Shown here: positions 6,880 through 42,934 of the stretch, piece after piece
How the letters are laid out: the number at the start of each line of letters is the position of its first letter
Position numbering within the stretch: the stretch's first letter is position 1
Assembly (NCBI GenBank): GCA_027452045.1
Contig: DAIDHH010000037.1
Span: forward strand, 1 to 46,716
Reading direction: 5' to 3'
Origin: Gammaproteobacteria bacterium
GTDB lineage: Bacteria > Pseudomonadota > Gammaproteobacteria > Steroidobacterales > Steroidobacteraceae
DNA: 46,716 nt
Translations under genes and position numbers: made by a program
Notes under the pieces: generated by a model
Seen by the model: only the letters and a program-made list of their open reading frames with translations
What the model was told of the DNA's origin: nothing
The model's database searches: none

Positions 6880-7398
6880 TCAGCCGAGCAAGGCTGGATT
6901 GGCGCGCCAGACTGCCCACGCGAGGGCGCAGGCGAAGGTGACCCAGGCCAGATAGGGCATCAGCAGCACGGCGGCGGCGCGATCCACGCGCCAAAACGCC
7001 AGCGCCGTGGCGACCAGCAGCACGAGCAGCAACACGATCCAGACAAACGATGCGGCCCCGAAGTGCCAACGGAAGAAGACCCACGACCATGCGGTATTGA
7101 CGGCAAGCTGCACGAAAAACAGGATCATGGGCGTGGAGGCGGCTGGACGCATGCGCCACACGCGCCATGACGCAATTGCCATGAGGGTATATAGCACGGT
7201 CCACACCGGCCCGAAGAGCCACGCCGGCGGCGCCCACGCCGGCTGGTTGAGTCGTGCGTAAAACGCTGCAGCATGAATCGAGGCGATGGCGCCAAGGGCT
7301 TCGGCCGCAAGGGCAATCGCAAGTGAGACGAGGAGCAATCCCAGGTCTTGCCGCGCTGGAGCGGACGGTGCGGAAGGTGCTCGGGGACTGCGGGTCAT
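6880..7398 (-). CDS. tspO: TspO/MBR family membrane protein
   Basis: 172 residues, a TspO/tryptophan-rich sensory protein that binds porphyrins and related tetrapyrroles in the membrane. It has the expected five hydrophobic segments. Signatures include FYARLNQPAWAPPAWLFGPV in the first loop and WTVLYTLMAIASWRVW, plus a later WSWVFF stretch; the many Trp residues fit. The start is the ATG at 7398 (MTRSPRAPS). The frame continues upstream but that part looks random. It lies about 160 bases downstream of the carbon-uptake genes on the same strand, so co-transcription is possible but not shown. Confidence 0.93.
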   Translation of the reverse strand: MTRSPRAPSAPSAPARQDLGLLLVSLAIALAAEALGAIASIHAAAFYARLNQPAWAPPAWLFGPVWTVLYTLMAIASWRVWRMRPAASTPMILFFVQLAVNTAWSWVFFRWHFGAASFVWIVLLLVLLVATALAFWRVDRAAAVLLMPYLAWVTFACALAWAVWRANPALLG

Positions 7399-7558: not shown

Positions 7559-7819
7559 CTACGCCCGGACTGTCCCGGAGTTTGCCGCGACTGCTGCGCC
7601 GGTCGTGCCGGTATCTGCATCACGGGCGATTCGCGCCTCCGACCACGGCCGCAACAGGTGCCCAAGCAGCTCGAGGTCATTGGCCAGCATGACGGGGTCG
7701 CGGTCGAGTGCCGTGTGCAGTGTCTGTTTGAGCCAGTCGCTCAAGGCAGGATGAACGAGGGCATGGGCGATGCGCCGCTCCGCGTTCAACAGGGCGACTT
7801 CAGATGATGACGGTAGCAT
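7559..7819 (-). CDS. small protein translationally coupled to dabA, unknown
   Basis: 86 residues starting MLPSSSEVALLNAERRIAHA and continuing with helix-forming sequence (ALSDWLKQTLHTALDRDPVM, then NDLELLGHLLRPWSEA). The C-terminal 20 residues are low-complexity Ala/Gly/Thr. There are no cysteines, signal peptide or membrane segment, so it is probably a cytoplasmic helical protein. GGGGAGGAG about 9 bases before the ATG is a strong ribosome site. The start lies inside the 3' end of dabA (20-base overlap), which implies coupled translation and a joint role with DabA/DabB. No known family is recognised. An accessory or regulatory subunit of the carbon-uptake complex is an inference from position only. 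Confidence 0.7.
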   Translation of the reverse strand: MLPSSSEVALLNAERRIAHALVHPALSDWLKQTLHTALDRDPVMLANDLELLGHLLRPWSEARIARDADTGTTGAAVAANSGTVRA

Positions 7820-10400
7820 GATGCGTGCTCCTCCCCAGGATCTCGTAGGTGCCCATCGCGCCTCTGGCGTTCGAATGATCCGCTTGCCTCGCATTCGCGC
7901 GCTCGGCCGTTGTGCCCGAGGCGCAGCGGGTCTCGCGCAGGACTTCCTCGGTGACTTCCTCACAGGATAGCCAGAGTGAGCCAAGATGGCGCTCGACCGA
8001 ATGCTGCTGCAGGCGAAACAGGTACAGCCACTGATTCTCGATCAGCTCCCGCAGTTGCGGCTGGCGCCCGAGCACGTGCTCGATCTTCTCGCGCGGCGCA
8101 TCGACGAGCACCGACAGGCGCAGCGGAGTGTGCATCCAGCGGGTCCCGTCGTGAACTGACTGTCTGGCGAGCCCGATGCGCAGATCGCCGCCGTGTCCTT
8201 CGAGAACACCGATGCGCTCCCCGACCACGTTGTGCAGCACCTTGTTGCCGCTCCCCAGACGTTCCGGGTCGACCGTGGAGCCGTAGTACTGCAGGTTGAT
8301 CCACAGCGCAACCCGCAGCGGACCTGAGCAGATCTGCTCGAGCAGGCTGCCGTCACCGTCGTCCTGCCAGCGGTATTCGTGTAGAAAGACTCTCCCCCGC
8401 AGGTCGACGCCGCGGGTGCGCTCGCGGGGCGCAACGATAAGGGCGGCATTGCCCGCAAGCCCCCATTCCGGGCGCACCTGCGACCAGTCACGGCCCCTGC
8501 GCCGCAGTCGCTTGAGAAGCGCCGCGTCGCGCTCGGCGAAGCGGGTGAGTCCGAGGGCCGGTGCGCGCTCACGCCGGACTCGAGCGCCCGCACGCTGCAC
8601 GGTCTGGCGCAGCCGGTCGAGGTGCGCGGCGTGGGTGTGAGGCACCCGGTCAAGATCGAACAGCTCGATCTCGTCGGTGGTGGTGTCGTGCAGGCCCGCG
8701 ATCGCCAGAGTGCCCTGCGGGATGTGGATGCCGCGGGCGGCGAGTGCGGCACGGACCGCGGGGTCGTTGAGCAGATCGGCAAGGATGCGCGCGTTGATCG
8801 CCCCGCTGTGGCCCCCGCAGGCACCGCAGGCAAGACCGGCGGCCTGAGGGTTGTTGGCCGTCTGCGCGCCGTGCCCGATGAGGACGAGCAGGGGCGCGAA
8901 GGGACCGGTGATCCCCATGGCGCGCAGTATGCCGGCGGCAAGATCGTACCGGGCATCGCAACGCTCGCTGTCAGCGCTCTTCAGGCGGGGAGCGAGCGCA
9001 GAGCGCTGCCGGCGCGAGAGCCCCGTCTCTTCGGGCGCATCACTGCCGCATCCAAGCGTCCGGGCAAGCAGCTTCGGCAGATACGTGAGACCGAGCATCT
9101 CGACCATGGTGAACGCGCCGGAGGGGAGGCGAAGGAAGGGTTGCAGGCTTGCCCGCTGGCGCAGCGCTTTGCGGCGCCTGCCGGCGATGTCGCGGTCGAG
9201 GATGGCATCGCCGGTGGAGTCGCTTGCTTCGAGTGTCGGTGCGAGCAACCCCGGCACGCGGACCTGATCGAGTGCACTCGCGAGGGGCGAATAGCAAATG
9301 GGCAGCCCGAAGAAGCCCGCGAACCCGTAAGTCCGGGCTCCCGGGTCGATATGCTCTATGGCACGGCGCATGCGCTCGGAACGCACGTCGATGCAGAACA
9401 CGAGCTGTGCGTGCGGCGGCCCTGAAGTCGCCTCGGGTGCGGATGGGCGTGCGGCGGTCAGAGATTTGAAGAGCTCGTGCTGGTAGGCCAGTTCGCGGGC
9501 GCGCTGCCACAGCAGATCGATCGCGATCGAGGCATCGCAGTCGAGGCTCCCGGCAGCACTCCAGTGCCGCATCCAGCTCATCCAGGCCGAGCGCTCGTCA
9601 TGGCGTCCGTCGTGCAGAAGCGCTTCCCAGCACAGGCGGATCACGAGCAGGGCGGGAAGATGCGTATCGTCCCGCCCGGTGAGCGAAGCCTCCCAGCGCA
9701 GCCACGCACACCAGGCCGCCCAGCCACCGATGCGCAGCGCAATGAGCTCGAGCAACTCCGGAAGCTGCCTCTCACGCACGGCCAGTCGATCGAGCGCCCA
9801 GTGAAGTGCGTCATCGCCGTCCTGCGGCAGCTCCCTGGCGCGCTCATGGACCGCCGCGAAGCGGTGGTCCTGGAGGAGTGAGGCGCGCCATTGGCGATAG
9901 AACCCGGGGTGGCTGTCGGGATGCCAGTCAGACTGGAGGCGGTCGAAGTACGCCGCGCAGTATTCGCTGATCTGCTGCGTCACCCGGGCAGGCCAGGACA
10001 AGCCTCCATATGGCGCGATGCCTGCCTCGAGCGCATCGCTGAGCAGTGGCAGCCCGCGGGTGACTCGTTCGGACTCCGAGAGTGCCGCGACGGCCGCCTG
10101 TACGGTCGGTACGAGAGACTGCTCACGCAGCGCCTGTTCGAGATGGCAGCGTTGGATTTCCCCGCTCTGCCAGGCGTGCAGGTACTCTGCGCGCGGCAGC
10201 GTCATGGGTGCACCGGCGAGCCGACGCAGGCGCGCCGCGGTGGCGGCAAACGGCCGTTCTCGATGCCCCCAGTAGGGATTGAAGGCGATCTGCCGGTCGA
10301 GCGGCCAGGCCGGCGCGACGGTCCGGCATGCCGCCTCTAGGGCTGCGCGCCGCGCGCAGGGCTCGGTACGGGAGGCGCTGAGGGTGCAAGATTCGCTCAC
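7800..10400 (-). CDS. dabA: DabA, inorganic carbon transport subunit (DUF2309/UPF0753)
   Basis: 866 residues of the DabA family. Together with DabB it captures CO2 and, driven by ion flow, accumulates bicarbonate in the cytoplasm. DabA is a distant beta-carbonic-anhydrase relative with one zinc. The predicted zinc/active-site residues are all present: Cys336 and Asp338 in FCIDVRSE, His510 in LIGHG and Cys525 in GLACGACGG. The His-to-Cys spacing is 15, as I recall for the characterised Halothiobacillus protein. The start is taken as GTG at 10400, giving a 4-base GTGA overlap with the dabB stop and GAAGGCGG just upstream. A GTG/TTG-type frame start 30 bases further up is less likely. The order dabB-dabA-small gene behind a divergent LysR gene supports the role. 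Confidence 0.95.
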   Translation of the reverse strand: MSESCTLSASRTEPCARRAALEAACRTVAPAWPLDRQIAFNPYWGHRERPFAATAARLRRLAGAPMTLPRAEYLHAWQSGEIQRCHLEQALREQSLVPTVQAAVAALSESERVTRGLPLLSDALEAGIAPYGGLSWPARVTQQISEYCAAYFDRLQSDWHPDSHPGFYRQWRASLLQDHRFAAVHERARELPQDGDDALHWALDRLAVRERQLPELLELIALRIGGWAAWCAWLRWEASLTGRDDTHLPALLVIRLCWEALLHDGRHDERSAWMSWMRHWSAAGSLDCDASIAIDLLWQRARELAYQHELFKSLTAARPSAPEATSGPPHAQLVFCIDVRSERMRRAIEHIDPGARTYGFAGFFGLPICYSPLASALDQVRVPGLLAPTLEASDSTGDAILDRDIAGRRRKALRQRASLQPFLRLPSGAFTMVEMLGLTYLPKLLARTLGCGSDAPEETGLSRRQRSALAPRLKSADSERCDARYDLAAGILRAMGITGPFAPLLVLIGHGAQTANNPQAAGLACGACGGHSGAINARILADLLNDPAVRAALAARGIHIPQGTLAIAGLHDTTTDEIELFDLDRVPHTHAAHLDRLRQTVQRAGARVRRERAPALGLTRFAERDAALLKRLRRRGRDWSQVRPEWGLAGNAALIVAPRERTRGVDLRGRVFLHEYRWQDDGDGSLLEQICSGPLRVALWINLQYYGSTVDPERLGSGNKVLHNVVGERIGVLEGHGGDLRIGLARQSVHDGTRWMHTPLRLSVLVDAPREKIEHVLGRQPQLRELIENQWLYLFRLQQHSVERHLGSLWLSCEEVTEEVLRETRCASGTTAERANARQADHSNARGAMGTYEILGRSTHHATVII

Positions 10401-11947
10401 GCTGCACCGCCTTCGCGTTGCGCGAGCCATTGTCCGAGGCGTGAGCCCTCGGGGCGCATCCCATGCCAGGGCCAGCGGCAGCTCACCAGCCGCGTCAGCG
10501 GCTCATCGAGGAAGTACCCGGCCGAACTCCAGGCGAGCAGCCGCGCGCGGTATGCGCCAGGTGCGCCGTGCGGCGCCAGCCACTGCGACAGGTACAGGCC
10601 CAGAAACGAGAGTCCCCCGAGCAGCGCTAGCCCCGGCACCGGGGTAACGGACGTGACGCCGATGATGCGGTCGATCGAGACGTGCCACAGGAGGTAAAGC
10701 TGCATTCCGAGGGCTGCGGCGGCGAGGTTGCGCATCTGGATGCGAAGGTCCCATGGGTCATTCCACAGCAGCGTGGCGACACCCAGGCTGCACACGAGCA
10801 GCGCACTCCAGGGGAGCGGGGCGATGCGCAGCGCATCCCGCCACAACCAAGCCGATCCGCCCGTCACGATGGCTGCCGCGAGCAGCGCCAGCAGGACCGT
10901 CGTTCCCGCGACCGCCTGTGTCTCAGGCAGCATGCGCCGAGCGGTGCCGTCGCGTACGGCATCTCCGGAGGCGAGGAACGCGTGCGCCTTGTAGAGCGCG
11001 TGTCCGATCAGGTGCAGCAGCGCCAGGTCGTAGAGGCCGAGTCCACACTCGGCGGCCATGAGCCCCATTTGCGAACAGGTGGACCACGCCAATCGTCCCT
11101 TGCGCGAGGGAATGGTCATCATGGTGAGTCCGGCGAGCGCCGCGCTGGCGCTGCCGATGAGCACGAGCAACGCCTGGGCTCCCGGGCACGCCGCCATGAG
11201 GGGGGCAAGCCGGATCAGAACATAGCCGCCGAGATTGACCACCCCGGCATGCAACAGCGCGGAGACGCTGGTGGGCGCCTCCATGACCTGCACCAGCCAG
11301 CCATGGACCGGGAACTGTGCGGACTTCAGCAACACGGCCGCGGCGAGCAGCAGCGCGGCGAGCTGGAGAGTTGCGAAGGAGGCGCCCCCCGCGGCGGCGA
11401 TCCGCTCGAGCGCCGACAAGTCGAGCGTGTGGCAGTGCGCAAAGAGGAGCGCCGCAGCGCCCGCCAGGCACAGCTCGGCCAGGCGGCTCGAGACGAATTT
11501 CTTGCGGGCGGCGAGCCGCGCCCCCGGTCTCTCGGGGTAATGCGTGAGCAGCGGATGCAGCGTCACGCTGCTCGTGAACCAAGCGAGAATGAGTATCGCG
11601 AAGTTGTGCGCGGCAAGCACCGCGGTGACCGAAGCGAGGGTGAGGAGGAGCGCAATGACGAAGCGGCGCTCACCGGATTCGCCCGAAAGATTGCCGCGCG
11701 AATAGCGGGCAATGATCCAGCCGAGGAACGCCACCAGGGTCATCACGGCCCCGGCGAGGGGCGAGAGCGCAAAGTGCAGCCACCCGGGCGCAAGACGCAG
11801 CGCATCGCTCGCCAGAGCGATGGCAAGGGCAACGCCAGCCGACCCTTCGAGCACCTGCCAGATATGCCGGCGCCCAAGGGCGGCGCTCGCGCCGAGCACG
11901 TACACGAGGGGAACCAGCCACGCGAGCCATTGCGGAGGATGCGACAT
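10397..11947 (-). CDS. dabB: DabB, membrane subunit of the carbon transporter (NuoL-like)
   Basis: 516 residues and about a dozen hydrophobic segments of the proton-antiporter/NADH dehydrogenase subunit 5 type. The core signature LLKSAQFPVHGWLVQVMEAP followed by TSVSALLHAGVVNLGGYVL is clear, including the Lys and His residues used for ion translocation in this superfamily. As partner of DabA it would couple cation flow to CO2 hydration. It is shorter than NuoL, as expected for DabB, and no other Nuo gene is near. The start is taken as ATG 11947 (MSHPPQWLAW) with GGGG upstream; ATG 11965 and GTG 11968 are alternatives. Its stop overlaps the dabA GTG. Confidence 0.93.
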   Translation of the reverse strand: MSHPPQWLAWLVPLVYVLGASAALGRRHIWQVLEGSAGVALAIALASDALRLAPGWLHFALSPLAGAVMTLVAFLGWIIARYSRGNLSGESGERRFVIALLLTLASVTAVLAAHNFAILILAWFTSSVTLHPLLTHYPERPGARLAARKKFVSSRLAELCLAGAAALLFAHCHTLDLSALERIAAAGGASFATLQLAALLLAAAVLLKSAQFPVHGWLVQVMEAPTSVSALLHAGVVNLGGYVLIRLAPLMAACPGAQALLVLIGSASAALAGLTMMTIPSRKGRLAWSTCSQMGLMAAECGLGLYDLALLHLIGHALYKAHAFLASGDAVRDGTARRMLPETQAVAGTTVLLALLAAAIVTGGSAWLWRDALRIAPLPWSALLVCSLGVATLLWNDPWDLRIQMRNLAAAALGMQLYLLWHVSIDRIIGVTSVTPVPGLALLGGLSFLGLYLSQWLAPHGAPGAYRARLLAWSSAGYFLDEPLTRLVSCRWPWHGMRPEGSRLGQWLAQREGGAA

Positions 11948-12021
11948 GTGAGCCCCGGTGACCATCACGATGGCGCGCAGTATTCCTGCGGCGGGAAGAT
12001 CTGTAAAATAGAATAAAGAGA

Positions 12022-12045: not shown

Positions 12046-12930
12046 ATGAGAAACCTCAACTTCCACCATCTCCTCTACTTCTGGACCGTGGCCCAGCGCG
12101 GCCATCTCACCCGAGCCGCCGCGCAGCTGCGGGTCTCACAGTCGGCGCTCTCCGCGCAGATTCGCCAGCTCGAGGCCTATCTCGGCCGGCCGCTGTTCGA
12201 GCGCCGTGGCCGGTCGCTGCAGCTGACCGACTTCGGCGCCGTGGTGCTCGACTATGCGGACAGCATCTTTGGGCTCGGCCAGGAGCTGATGGCGACCGTG
12301 CGCGGGGGCCCCGGGCAGCGGCTGCGGCAGCTGCGCGTCGGGGCCGTGGCCACGCTCTCGCGCAACTTCACGGAGAATCTGCTGCGCCCGCTGTTCGGCA
12401 GCCCCGAGGTGCGCCTCACCCTTCAGTCCGGGAGTCTCGATGAGCTTCTCGAGCGGCTGCGGGTCCACAACCTCGACGTGGTGCTATCGAACACACCCGT
12501 TGCCGCGGAGGCGAACCGTCCGTGGCGCTGCACGAGACTGTCGCACCAGTCGGTGTGCCTGATCGGACCGCCGCGGCCCGCGCGGCGCCGCTTCAGGGTT
12601 CCCGATGACCTCGAAGGCCGGCGCGTGGTGCTGCCGGGGCCGAGCAGCGACGTGCGCAGCCAGTTCGATCTGTGGTGCGAACGCTCGGGCCTGACGGTTG
12701 AGGTGGCTGCGGAGGTCGACGACATGGCGATGCTGCGCCTCATCGCCAGGGACTCGGGAGCCATTGCCGTGCTGCCCGAGGTAGTCGTGCAGGACGAGTT
12801 GCGCGATGGGCGCCTGCAGCGTTACTGCCCGGTCCCGGGCGTGTACGAGAACTTCTACGCCATCACCGCGTTCCGTCACAGTCCCTCGGCGTTGGTGCAG
12901 CAGCTGTTGACGCCGACCAAGGCCCCATAG
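12046..12930 (+). CDS. LysR-family regulator (NhaR-like), probable regulator of dabBA
   Basis: 294 residues. The N-terminal winged helix-turn-helix is clear: FHHLLYFWTVAQRGHLTRAA, then LRVSQSALSAQIRQLEAYLG and RRGRSLQLTDFG. A substrate-binding domain follows (about residues 95-290). The opening NFHHLLYFW is typical of the NhaR-like branch. It is transcribed away from dabB across a 98-base gap, the standard arrangement for a LysR activator of an adjacent operon. LysR regulators beside dabAB occur in other autotrophs and are linked to low-CO2 induction. The effector here is unknown. The Shine-Dalgarno is weak. Confidence 0.92.
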   Translation: MRNLNFHHLLYFWTVAQRGHLTRAAAQLRVSQSALSAQIRQLEAYLGRPLFERRGRSLQLTDFGAVVLDYADSIFGLGQELMATVRGGPGQRLRQLRVGAVATLSRNFTENLLRPLFGSPEVRLTLQSGSLDELLERLRVHNLDVVLSNTPVAAEANRPWRCTRLSHQSVCLIGPPRPARRRFRVPDDLEGRRVVLPGPSSDVRSQFDLWCERSGLTVEVAAEVDDMAMLRLIARDSGAIAVLPEVVVQDELRDGRLQRYCPVPGVYENFYAITAFRHSPSALVQQLLTPTKAP

Positions 12931-31104: not shown

Positions 31105-31282
31105 CGATGGGTTTCGGCGGATGCAAGTCCGCCGGTGAAAAGGGAACACGGTAGGGCGCTCGGGCCCGATCCGTGGCTGCCCCCGCAACTGTGAGCGGCG
31201 AGTTTCGCATCCAAGATGGCCACTGGGTAACCGGGAAGGCCGGGCGAGACACCGACCCGCGAGCCAGGAGACCTGCCCATCG
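31105..31282 (+). promoter_or_regulatory. cobalamin (B12) riboswitch
   Basis: A class I cobalamin riboswitch. Conserved blocks appear in order: GGTTTCGGCGGATGCAAGTC, then CGCCGGTGAAAAGGGAACAC, then GCTGCCCCCGCAACTGTGA, and the B12 box GCCAGGAGACCTGCC at 31263-31277. The closing stem P1 is CGATGGG (31105-31111) with CCCATCG (31276-31282). It lies about 50 bases before the NiCoT gene. A hairpin at 31308-31323 (CCGCAC-gtgg-GTGCGG) abuts the gene's GGAGGGAGAGG ribosome site, suggesting control of translation. B12 binding should reduce transporter synthesis. Confidence 0.95.
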
Positions 31283-31334
31283 CTGTCATCGTGCAATGGC
31301 TCCATCCCCGCACGTGGGTGCGGAGGGAGAGGTA

Positions 31335-32357
31335 ATGTCGCGGCTCTTTCCGAGTCTCCCGGGCGGCTTGCGTGGGCGCATGGCGCTCCTTGCCGTGATG
31401 CTCATCGCCTGCAATGCGCTCGCCTGGCTGTGGGCTCTCCTTGCGTTTCGCCACCATCCGCTGCTCATGGGCACGGCGCTGCTCGCCTTCAGCTTCGGGC
31501 TGCGCCACGCGGTGGATGCGGATCACATCGCCGCCATCGACAACGTGACGCGCAAGCTCATGCAGGAGGGTCAGCGGCCGGTGACGGTGGGCCTATATTT
31601 CTCTCTCGGACACTCCAGCATCGTCGTTGGCCTCACCCTCGCGGTCGCCATCGCCGCTGCGGCGCTGCACGGGCGGTTCGAGCACTGGAGGGTCCTGGGG
31701 GGCGTGATCGGCACGGCCGTCTCGGCGTTCTTTCTCTTCGCCATCGCGGTGGCGAACCTCGCCATCCTCTCGGGCACCTGGCGCAGCTTCCGCGACGCGC
31801 GCGAGGGCCGATTGTCCGAGGAGGCGCCGCTGTTCACGGGCGGGGGACTCATGGCGCGGCTTTTCCGGGGGGCGTTCCGGCTGATCGAGCACCCCTGGCA
31901 GATGTACGGACTCGGTCTACTCTTTGGCCTCGGGTTCGACACCGCGACCCAGGTGGGGCTCCTCGGGGTGTCGGCGGCGGGCAGCTCGAAGGGCCTCTCG
32001 CCCTTTGCCATCATGATCTTTCCCGTGCTTTTCTCCGCGGGCATGGCGCTCGTGGATACCGCCGACAGCATGCTGATGCTCGGCGCCTACGGCTGGGCGT
32101 TCGTCAAGCCCATCCGCAAGCTCTATTACAACCTGACCATCACCTCCCTCTCGGTGCTGGTGGCCGTACTCGTCGGGAGCATCGAGACCTTGGGTCTCAT
32201 CGCCGGCTACTTCAAGCCCGCGGGTGCCTTCTGGAGGCTCGTGGGCGCGGTCAACGGCAATTTCGCCGCGCTGGGTTACGGCATCATCGGGCTATTCGTG
32301 CTCGGGTGGCTCGTCTCGCTCCTCATCTACAAGATCAAACGTTACGAGACGGCCTGA
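31335..32357 (+). CDS. NiCoT family cobalt/nickel transporter
   Basis: 340 residues with about eight membrane segments. The family signature H-x4-D-H is at 58-64 (RHAVDADHIAAIDN), and LGLLFGLGFDTATQVGLLG and a Ser/Thr-rich late motif are also present. NiCoT permeases import Ni or Co with high affinity. The upstream B12 riboswitch points to cobalt. The start is ATG 31335, with GGAGAGG just before it. The last 66 bases overlap the 3' end of the convergent GGDEF-EAL gene. Cobalt would feed cobalamin synthesis and perhaps the nitrile hydratase at 42.3 kb. Confidence 0.94.
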   Translation: MSRLFPSLPGGLRGRMALLAVMLIACNALAWLWALLAFRHHPLLMGTALLAFSFGLRHAVDADHIAAIDNVTRKLMQEGQRPVTVGLYFSLGHSSIVVGLTLAVAIAAAALHGRFEHWRVLGGVIGTAVSAFFLFAIAVANLAILSGTWRSFRDAREGRLSEEAPLFTGGGLMARLFRGAFRLIEHPWQMYGLGLLFGLGFDTATQVGLLGVSAAGSSKGLSPFAIMIFPVLFSAGMALVDTADSMLMLGAYGWAFVKPIRKLYYNLTITSLSVLVAVLVGSIETLGLIAGYFKPAGAFWRLVGAVNGNFAALGYGIIGLFVLGWLVSLLIYKIKRYETA

Positions 32358-41774: not shown

Positions 41775-42083
41775 CTACGGCGGGCCGATTCGATCGCACT
41801 GTTTCGGCACGCCCAGTCGGGGGGCCTTGCACTGGTAGGTGCCTACGCCCTGCTTGACCGTGACCCAGTGCCAGGTCCCGCTGCTGTCCTGCCATGCGTT
41901 CTGCACATTGGAATCGGACAGGAACTGAAGCGCCCCGGCGGCAATGAAATCCACGGCCTTGTGCGCCGGTCCTCCCTTCTGCGGTGCACTGCCCGCACAA
42001 CCGGTCAAACCGGCGACCAGCAAAACGCCCGCGAGGCGCGCCGCGATCTCCCACGGGCGGCGGGACCTTGTATTGTCATGCAT
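41775..42083 (-). CDS. small lipoprotein, unknown function
   Basis: 102 residues. The signal segment ends in LTGC (IAARLAGVLLVAGLTGCAGS), a good lipobox. The mature part includes FIAAGALQFLSDSNVQNAWQ and SSGTWHWVTVKQGVGTYQCK with two further Cys residues (YQC and KQC). The pattern is compatible with a small periplasmic-face lipoprotein, but no family is recognised. The start is ATG 42083, with GGAGTGAG upstream; the longer frame to 42131 adds a polar lead. It is divergent from the nitrile hydratase operon. Confidence 0.78.
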   Translation of the reverse strand: MHDNTRSRRPWEIAARLAGVLLVAGLTGCAGSAPQKGGPAHKAVDFIAAGALQFLSDSNVQNAWQDSSGTWHWVTVKQGVGTYQCKAPRLGVPKQCDRIGPP

Positions 42084-42313
42084 CGGCTCACTCCATACGC
42101 CACTTGGCGATTGTTCCGAATCGCCAGCCACTTATCGTGAAGATTGTGGCATTCATTCGATATCGCGTCTACCGGTCCCGTGCGCCAGCTGGGGCAGTGT
42201 GCAGCCTCCACAAGCGCACATTGCTCCTGACACCCGTGAGTACCGTGAGCAGGGGCCGAGGATCCACCCGGGGTACACTTGCCCACGCTTTGGGAAGGAG
42301 TGAAGCTAGCCTC

Positions 42314-42934
42314 ATGGATCACGATCTCGAGCATCGCCACGGTGCACCTGGACACTCGGCGCTTGAAGGGATGCAGGCGCGCGTTCGCGCGCTCGAAACG
42401 ATCCTGACCGAGAAGGGCCTGGTCGACCCTCAGGCGCTCGATCGGATCGTCGATGCGTTCGAGAGGAAGATCGGCCCGCGAAACGGCGCGCGGATCGTGG
42501 CGCGCGCCTGGAGCGATTCCGCGTTCAGGGCGCGGCTCCTCGCCGATGCCACGGAGGCTGCCAATTCCATGGGTTTCTCGAGCCCGGTCGGGGCCCATCT
42601 CATCGCGGTCGAGAATACGCCCGAGACCCACAACCTCGTCGTCTGTACGCTCTGTTCCTGCTATCCCTGGGAGGTGTTGGGGCTCCCGCCGGTCTGGTAC
42701 AAATCGGCGCCTTACCGAAGCCGCGCCGTCATCGAGCCGCGCGCCGTGCTCGCCGAGTTCGGCGTGGCCTTGCCCCCTGACACACGGATCCGTGTCTGGG
42801 ATTCGACCGCGGAGACGCGCTTCCTGGTGATCCCGATGCGCCCTCCCGGCACCCAAGGGTGGAGCGAGGAGCGGCTCGCGGCCCTCGTGACGCGCGACAG
42901 CATGATCGGCACCGGGCTGGCGAAGCGGCCATGA
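42314..42934 (+). CDS. nthA: nitrile hydratase alpha subunit (cobalt type)
   Basis: 206 residues. The metal site is CTLCSC (C111, C114, S115, C116) in VVCTLCSCYPWEVLGLPPVW, where Thr after the first Cys marks the non-corrin cobalt class; iron enzymes have CSLCSC. Other signatures are IGPRNGARIVARAW, YRSRAVIEPRAVL, RVWDSTAETRFL and LAALVTRDSMIG. Nitrile hydratase adds water to nitriles to make amides in the cytoplasm. A Shine-Dalgarno AAGGAG lies unusually far (about 15 bases) before the ATG at 42314. The 4-base ATGA overlap with the beta gene couples translation. Thiocyanate hydrolase gamma is similar but its operon has a split beta. Confidence 0.94.
   Translation: MDHDLEHRHGAPGHSALEGMQARVRALETILTEKGLVDPQALDRIVDAFERKIGPRNGARIVARAWSDSAFRARLLADATEAANSMGFSSPVGAHLIAVENTPETHNLVVCTLCSCYPWEVLGLPPVWYKSAPYRSRAVIEPRAVLAEFGVALPPDTRIRVWDSTAETRFLVIPMRPPGTQGWSEERLAALVTRDSMIGTGLAKRP

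What the first reader, a model, noticed from the sequence alone, without database searches (positions are those of the whole stretch)
7559..7819. Unknown small gene translationally coupled to dabA
An 86-residue helical protein with a strong ribosome site begins inside the end of dabA. The two-subunit DAB transporter is known as DabA plus DabB. A third gene in the same transcript, with its start buried in dabA, suggests an accessory, assembly or regulatory subunit of carbon uptake that I cannot match to any family. Gene order and overlap are seen directly; the role is inference.
Basis: partly seen in the sequence, partly recalled or inferred. Interest (0 to 1): 0.7.

Follow-up and report, generated by a model that had tools for sequence, protein, structure and literature searches.

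The report
Third gene of a CO2-uptake operon
A small uncharacterised gene found at the end of a known bacterial CO2-uptake operon in several lineages is real and evolutionarily conserved, which makes it a candidate helper of carbon uptake, although its apparent overlap with the main transporter gene is a side effect of a deleted neighbour.

Summary
The 86-codon ORF at 7559-7819 (minus) is a real gene: open in 16 of 16 near-relative loci held and under purifying selection. No Pfam, NCBIfam or PHROGs model matched it at E up to 1. Close homologues are tied to the DAB inorganic-carbon operon. In an order-wide sample of Alphaproteobacteria they occur in 6 of 297 genomes; all 6 are among the 45 with DabA, and all 6 copies lie downstream of dabA on its strand.

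The 'start buried in dabA' is not the ancestral arrangement. Many relatives carry a cysD-type gene between dabA and this gene, which starts 21-22 nt after an uninterrupted cysD. The window lost most of cysD; about 100 nt of its 3' end now form part of DabA's odd tail.

cysD is broken or gone in 8 of the 16 loci while the small gene persists, so it follows DAB rather than CysD. The operon is lysR / dabB-dabA-[cysD]-[DUF6671]-small gene, brackets optional. The product is a soluble, predicted three-helix protein, most likely a cytosolic accessory factor of DAB (inferred). Distant relatives occur on plasmids, and in one genus member, without DAB, which argues for caution.

The parts
7559..7819 (-). 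Small gene ('sm'): 86 aa, soluble, predicted three-helix protein; last gene of the DAB operon
   Evidence: Translation; homologues; purifying selection; model; no TM segment (max KD19 0.69)
7828..7836 (-). Shine-Dalgarno sequence GGGGAGGAG before the ATG of the small gene; GGAG lies within 20 nt of the start in 22 of 22 relatives checked
7853..7949 (-). Remnant of the 3' end of a deleted cysD gene, partly read out of frame as the tail of DabA
   Evidence: Local DNA alignment to the cysD end of genome G036, score 61 against a maximum of 34 in 2000 first-order Markov resamplings; global alignment
7800..10430 (-). dabA (DUF2309/PF10070), zinc-site residues conserved (C346, D348, R350, H520, C535); residues after about 823 are not DabA-like
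   Evidence: site residues compared with a passage of PMC13144422
10397..11968 (-). dabB (Proton_antipo_M, NuoL-like)
   Evidence: overlaps dabA start
12046..12930 (+). Divergent LysR-family regulator, found at the same place in most related DAB loci whose flank was held
6880..7398 (-). tspO (TspO/MBR), next gene downstream, same strand; close downstream of the small gene in 7 of 15 near-relative loci

Best explanation
The ORF is a genuine optional third component of a DAB (DabA-DabB) inorganic-carbon uptake operon. Shown here: it is a conserved, selected gene at the end of the operon lysR / dabB-dabA-[cysD]-[DUF6671]-small gene; it outlives cysD in several lineages and occurs without DUF6671; its overlap with dabA in the window is secondary, made by a deletion of cysD. 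Inferred: its product is a small cytosolic helical protein that docks on the soluble DabA subunit (or the DabA-DabB interface) and helps assembly, stability or on/off control of vectorial CO2 hydration. I put the gene and operon part above 0.9 and the mechanism at about 0.45.
For: Genome association of close homologues: 6 of 45 DabA genomes against 0 of 252 without DabA in the order of G798 (Fisher p 9e-6, not corrected for phylogeny); 11 of 14 against 0 of 46 in the relatives set at E below 1e-12 (p 1e-9; two of the three DabA genomes without it are G044, of another family, and G008, whose contig ends inside cysD). Position: downstream of dabA on its strand in 6 of 6 of those order-level loci, in 3 named plasmids (Mesorhizobium terrae, Mesorhizobium INR15, Aminobacter NyZ550) and in 14 of 16 near-relative loci (of the other two, one contig begins inside cysD, and one has a dabA remnant upstream and an intact dabB-dabA downstream). 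Persistence: cysD uninterrupted in 7, cut by a contig end in 1, broken or absent in 8 of the 16; small gene open in all 16. Two loci that both lack cysD (L075, L077) still show pN 0.094 against pS 0.417. In L176 it follows dabA with neither cysD nor DUF6671 between. The protein is soluble and helical by prediction.
Against: Most DAB operons lack it: 39 of 45 DabA genomes in the order sample (some contigs are cut), and G001 in the window's genus. On the plasmid of Nitrobacter hamburgensis the gene stands intact while only a scrap of dabB (E 1e-5) and a very short, weak one of DUF6671 (13 residues, E 0.03) remain. G029, in the window's genus and without DabA, holds a distant relative (38.6 bits). 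On plasmids, relatives of 45-58% identity over the core (rows listed: 40 of 69 records) showed no annotated DAB gene in the 12 regions viewed. Outside the genus, distances of the small protein and DabA are not clearly correlated (9 loci, Mantel r 0.22, 235 of 2000 permutations as high). Broken cysD frames in metagenome bins could in part be sequencing error. No physical contact was tested.
Confidence: 0.45

Rival explanations
1. The small protein is a partner of the CysD/DUF6671 module (an ATP-sulfurylase small subunit-like enzyme), not of DAB; it sits near dabA only because that module does.
For: Of 45 DabA loci in the order sample, the gene is found in 5 of 13 with cysD or DUF6671 adjacent against 1 of 32 without (Fisher p 0.005; 1 of 30 and p 0.007 if two loci cut at the contig end are left out). 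On the DabA tree, of 7 independent pairs on starred branches about 4 go the same way and almost none the opposite way, too few for significance. In the 7 near-relative loci with uninterrupted cysD it follows cysD by 21-22 nt. PAPS-reductase-family genes lie within 4 kb of a distant relative in 3 of 12 plasmid regions viewed (3 of 5 Pseudomonas ones).
Against: cysD is broken or gone in 8 of 16 near-relative loci while the small gene stays open and selected; L176 has neither partner; 8 of 13 loci with cysD or DUF6671 lack the small gene; G001 keeps cysD without it.
Confidence: 0.2
2. It is one branch of a general family of short helical proteins, common on plasmids, with a generic job, and its place at the end of the DAB operon is recurrent hitch-hiking.
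For: Distant relatives lie beside recombinases, KleA, type IV secretion genes, DUF1173 and others in the 12 plasmid regions viewed; in 3 of the 12 the gene starts within 4 nt of the end of the preceding gene and in 2 more within 45 nt, and in 2 the match lies inside a longer ORF. A distant relative exists in DabA-less G029 and a weaker one in G677. The gene survives in Nitrobacter after loss of DAB. Presence on the DabA tree is scattered, with 8 changes (shuffled mean 19.8, minimum 15 of 200).
Against: The best-matching branch (E below 1e-18 in the order search) was beside dabA in 6 of 6 cases and not found in 252 genomes without DabA. The tree has far fewer changes than shuffled labels.
Confidence: 0.28
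3. The ORF is a chance open frame in GC-rich DNA or a leftover of cysD.
For: High GC makes long chance ORFs common.
Against: Frame-specific constraint, no stops in the aligned core of 15 sequences, conserved start and ribosome site, homologues in another class.
Confidence: 0.02

Closest known systems
DAB2 (DabA2-DabB2) of Halothiobacillus neapolitanus
   Same: dabB-dabA pair; zinc-site residues of DabA conserved in the window (against a passage of PMC13144422)
   Different: DAB2 is described there as a two-subunit complex; no counterpart of the small gene is mentioned in the passages seen
DAB1 of H. [quoted passage not shown]
   Same: A small third protein encoded in a DAB operon
   Different: That protein is described as transmembrane; this one has no transmembrane segment. 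Sequence relation not tested
LysR-nuoL-ybcC(COG3002) operons described by COGNAT (PMC5700660, section 10 read)
   Same: LysR in reverse direction, NuoL homologue, then DUF2309 gene
   Different: That section mentions PII, COG0659 and COG1008 as further neighbours; no cysD, DUF6671 or small helical gene
CysD, sulfate adenylyltransferase small subunit (TIGR02039, NF009214)
   Same: The gene lost from the window is of this family in relatives
   Different: It would be a second copy: the window's genome keeps a stronger-scoring CysD elsewhere (505 bits)
Unnamed short helical proteins of Pseudomonas, Thiothrix and other plasmids
   Same: Shared core of about 45-60 residues
   Different: No annotated DAB gene in the 12 regions viewed; lower similarity outside the core

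Membership tests
DAB operon (DabA PF10070 + DabB Proton_antipo_M) | DabA and DabB homologues adjacent | tested here: met
   PF10070 E 5.9e-249; PF00361 E 2.3e-36
DAB operon (DabA PF10070 + DabB Proton_antipo_M) | DabA zinc ligands Cys-His-Cys and Asp-Arg dyad | tested here: met
   C346, H520, C535, D348, R350 at matching spacing (site described in a passage of PMC13144422)
Small gene as a component of the DAB operon | Conserved adjacency to dabA in other lineages | tested here: met
Small gene as a component of the DAB operon | Occurs only with DabA | tested here: inconclusive
   Met for close homologues in two genome samples; Nitrobacter plasmid has it with DAB scraps only; distant relatives without DAB on plasmids, in G029 and in G677, with no DAB gene within 7 kb
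Small gene as a component of the DAB operon | Physical or functional link with DabA-DabB | not testable with these tools
   No complex prediction or experiment available
Hneap_0908-type third DAB1 subunit | Small transmembrane protein | tested here: not met
   Maximum 19-residue hydropathy 0.69 in the window protein, 1.13 at most among the 22 proteins scored
Named protein family (Pfam, NCBIfam, PHROGs) | Match to a curated model | tested here: not met
   No families at E up to 1 for the window protein; relatives tried gave none or only weak hits (Pfam ones below the curated cut-off)
Known fold in PDB | Structural match | tested here: inconclusive

The most novel reading that the evidence does not exclude
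A branch of DAB systems is a larger machine than DabA-DabB: a CysD-type adenylyl-transfer enzyme, DUF6671 and the small helical protein form an optional module that couples sulfur or nucleotide status to CO2 hydration, with the small protein as the adaptor on DabA that is kept even when the enzymes are lost.
Probability: 0.15. Interest if true: 0.75.

Novelty: new variant of a known kind. Interest (0 to 1): 0.5.

Why it matters
DAB is a CO2-concentrating system whose control is open: a passage of the DAB2 structure paper lists how futile cycling is prevented among the key questions (PMC13144422). A conserved extra gene of an unnamed protein family, found beside dabA in Alpha- and Gammaproteobacteria, gives a concrete candidate for such control, and it can be tested in named strains (Aminobacter NyZ550, Mesorhizobium terrae). 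The work also shows how a gene overlap in one genome can be a deletion scar instead of evidence of coupling.

Tried and rejected
Rejected: ancestral translational coupling to dabA (relatives have cysD in between). Rejected: chance ORF. Rejected: obligate CysD partner. No fusion of the small protein to DabA appeared in the 40 DAB regions of the phylum sample that were scanned (of 69 DabA genomes); only L132 matched, as a separate gene. Fold search and PDB sequence search gave nothing usable; the viral fold library and PADLOC were not searched. The L078 hit in Pseudomonas punonensis runs opposite to a predicted 545-aa frame and was dropped as chance. In the relatives set 39 of 60 genomes had some match at E up to 10; only those below 1e-12 were counted. 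Of the weaker ones I looked again at three: G029 is a distant relative of the wider family, G017 and G027 gave no profile hit. Weak hits G248, G407, G549 and G569 were dropped without looking at their context; G133 and G677 were kept as distant relatives. The whole-genome searches score only a limited number of candidates per genome, so absences are not proof. DabA tree: 76 rows = window, 15 near relatives, 42 of 45 order loci (L241, L242, L243 left out as fragments), 2 Mesorhizobium plasmids and 16 of the 37 other phylum loci held; L190 was in the tree but left out of the trait counts because its contig ends at dabA. Consensus promoter and terminator scans were uninformative. Literature: no held paper combined DUF2309 with sulfate adenylyltransferase; of 6 papers with three of inorganic carbon, DabA, DabB and sulfate adenylyltransferase none held the last; none mentioned DUF6671; of 3 papers holding two or more of DabA, DUF2309, COG3002, cysD and PF10070 none held cysD. 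This covers only the open-licence PMC library. Papers: PMC13144422 passages only; PMC5700660 passages and section 10; all others seen as listing and abstract starts only, among them PMC11338360, which names DabA and was not opened.

Full report
What is there. The ORF at 7559-7819 on the minus strand encodes 86 residues and starts 8 nt after a strong ribosome site. Upstream on the same strand lie dabA (7800-10430, PF10070) and dabB (10397-11968), with a divergent LysR gene at 12046-12930; downstream lies tspO (6880-7398). The small protein matches nothing in Pfam, NCBIfam or PHROGs at E up to 1. DabA's zinc-site residues are all present, at spacing that matches the published site, so the transporter looks competent.

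It is a gene. In the relatives set, 11 of 60 genomes, all labelled as the window's genus, have a homologue at E below 1e-12, one of them twice. Weaker matches were not counted; one of them, in G029, is a distant relative of the wider family. A scan of the GTDB contig collection gave 15 loci, of which L078 was dropped. Twelve of them lie in same-genus genomes; L064, L065, L074 and L075 lie in bins without a genus name and are placed by similarity only. Over 15 aligned sequences (L053 left out), mean pN was 0.242 and mean pS 0.506, with pN below pS in 104 of 105 pairs; in the core the true frame has a ratio of 0.33 and no stops, while the other five frames hold 7 to 31 stops each. The exception is a pair of near-identical sequences (L064, L067).

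The overlap with dabA is secondary. In many relatives a gene of about 316 codons stands between dabA and the small gene. It is CysD-like (TIGR02039 just above its cut-off, 399.6 against 396.6 bits; NF009214 just below, 412.3 against 413). In the 7 loci where cysD is uninterrupted, the small gene starts 21-22 nt after its stop. Aligning the window with genome G036 shows dabA homology ending at about residue 820, a gap of roughly 900 nt, then the last part of cysD and the small gene. The remnant (7853-7949) scores 61 against a maximum of 34 in 2000 random resamplings. DabA's tail is therefore read from deleted cysD and spacer. Both sides of the scar fit one lineage: the window's DabA is closest to that of G036 (L069), and the core of the small protein has its highest identity there (69% over 65 residues). 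That makes a chimeric assembly less likely, but reads were not available.

cysD decays while the small gene persists. Among the 16 loci cysD is uninterrupted in 7 (L064, L066, L068, L069, L073, L074, L076), cut by a contig end in 1 (L071), and broken or absent in 8 (window, L053, L065, L067, L070, L072, L075, L077). The small gene is open in all 16, though shorter, 70 residues, in L074. L075 and L077 both lack cysD and still show pN 0.094, pS 0.417. The opposite also occurs: G001 has dabB-dabA-cysD and no small gene. In G012 contig C364 a dabA remnant and a broken cysD precede the small gene, and a second, different dabB-dabA follows it. Some broken frames may be sequencing error.

Beyond the genus. 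Searching the plasmid collection with the window protein gave 128 records at E up to 10, led by Mesorhizobium terrae (E 6e-8), Nitrobacter hamburgensis (2e-7) and Mesorhizobium INR15 (2e-5). M. terrae carries LysR, dabB, dabA, cysD, DUF6671 and then the small gene; INR15 has the same order from dabB on, with a LysR gene further upstream. Aminobacter NyZ550 carries dabB, dabA, DUF6671 and the small gene. In the order of genome G798 the profile found 6 of 297 genomes; DabA is in 45 of 297; all 6 are among those 45. The 6 loci are: cysD and DUF6671 present (L174, L177); the same with a divergent CysD-like gene, 33% identical (L175); a cysD remnant and DUF6671 (L132); DUF6671 only (L178); neither (L176). 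In all 6 the small gene lies downstream of dabA on its strand. L178 and the Aminobacter plasmid have the same 40 bases before the start codon and should not be counted as independent. In a phylum sample of 398 genomes, 69 had a DabA match; close homologues of the small gene were found only in the window's genome and G798, with G677 as a weaker relative (E 9e-10) lacking DAB nearby and two weak hits not examined.

How the optional parts go together. Of 45 DabA loci examined in that order (some cut by contig ends), cysD or DUF6671 is adjacent in 13; the small gene is in 5 of these and in 1 of the other 32 (p 0.005; p 0.007 without L190 and L243, which end at dabA). On a DabA tree of 76 rows the small gene changes state 8 times, against a mean of 19.8 and a minimum of 15 in 200 shuffles: it follows the DabA tree but is gained or lost repeatedly. 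Tree-aware pairs agree with a link to cysD or DUF6671 but are too few for significance. Distances of the small protein and DabA correlate over all 22 loci (r 0.82), which the genus may explain, but not clearly over the 9 others (r 0.22, 235 of 2000 permutations as high).

The wider family. More distant relatives, with a shared core around S-x-W-L-[KR] and R-D-P...N-D, occur on plasmids: 69 plasmid records at E up to 1e-3 for the M. terrae protein, 41 of them Pseudomonas, and 9 Thiothrix records among 28 for the G133 relative. In the 12 regions viewed they lie beside recombinases, KleA, secretion genes, DUF1173 and others, with no annotated DAB gene; in 5 of the 12 the gene starts within 45 nt of the end of the preceding one. 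On the Nitrobacter plasmid the small gene is intact while only a scrap of dabB and a weak one of DUF6671 remain. G029, in the genus and without DabA, also holds a distant relative. These are the strongest results against a purely DAB-bound role of the family.

Structure. The predicted model is a three-helix protein with a long third helix (pLDDT 82, pTM 0.53); no useful fold match was found. Hydropathy shows no transmembrane segment in the 22 proteins scored.

Judgement. Shown: a selected gene, an operon association in two classes, persistence without cysD or DUF6671, and a deletion scar behind the overlap. Inferred: a cytosolic accessory factor for DAB. The rivals, a CysD/DUF6671 partner or a general family protein that often rides at operon ends, are not excluded. 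No description of this gene, or of cysD or DUF6671 beside dabA, turned up in the searches, most of whose papers were seen as listings only.

Noticed in passing
L085 (Nitrobacter hamburgensis X14 plasmid 1), 6958-7112, 7882-7920 and 7998-8246: Next to BMC-domain and cbbQ-type genes, a scrap of dabB and a short weak one of DUF6671 precede an intact small gene; the DAB operon seems to have been deleted there.
   Followed up: partly
L052 (G012 contig C364), 1484-7287 on the reversed strand: A degraded dabA and a frameshifted cysD precede the small gene, followed by a second, only 40% identical dabB-dabA: one DAB system seems replaced by another at the same spot.
   Followed up: partly
L053 (G012 contig C476): Its DabA groups with the alphaproteobacterial order on the tree, so transfer or contamination of this bin (6% listed contamination) is likely.
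   Followed up: no
L132, 7415-7537: A second lineage, in another class, retains only about the last 40 codons of cysD between dabA and DUF6671, as the window does.
   Followed up: partly
L134, L136, L233 and L234: cysD and DUF6671 lie beside dabA without the small gene; in L134 and L136 they are convergent to dabA, so there the association is by location rather than one transcript.
   Followed up: no
window 6880-7398 and L064-L070: tspO lies close downstream of the small gene in the window and 7 of 15 near relatives; in L071 and L073 it lies about 2.7 kb away, and it was not found in the flanks held of the other 6.
   Followed up: no
L012 (genome G029), about 1402-1910: A distant relative of the small protein, 38.6 bits, in a genus member without DabA; its own context was not studied.
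   Followed up: partly
window 41984-42934: ORF with a CTLCSC stretch that looks like a nitrile hydratase alpha subunit; recalled motif, not tested.
   Followed up: no
window 31173-32357: ORF that looks like a nickel/cobalt transporter of the HoxN/NiCoT kind; recalled motif, not tested.
   Followed up: no
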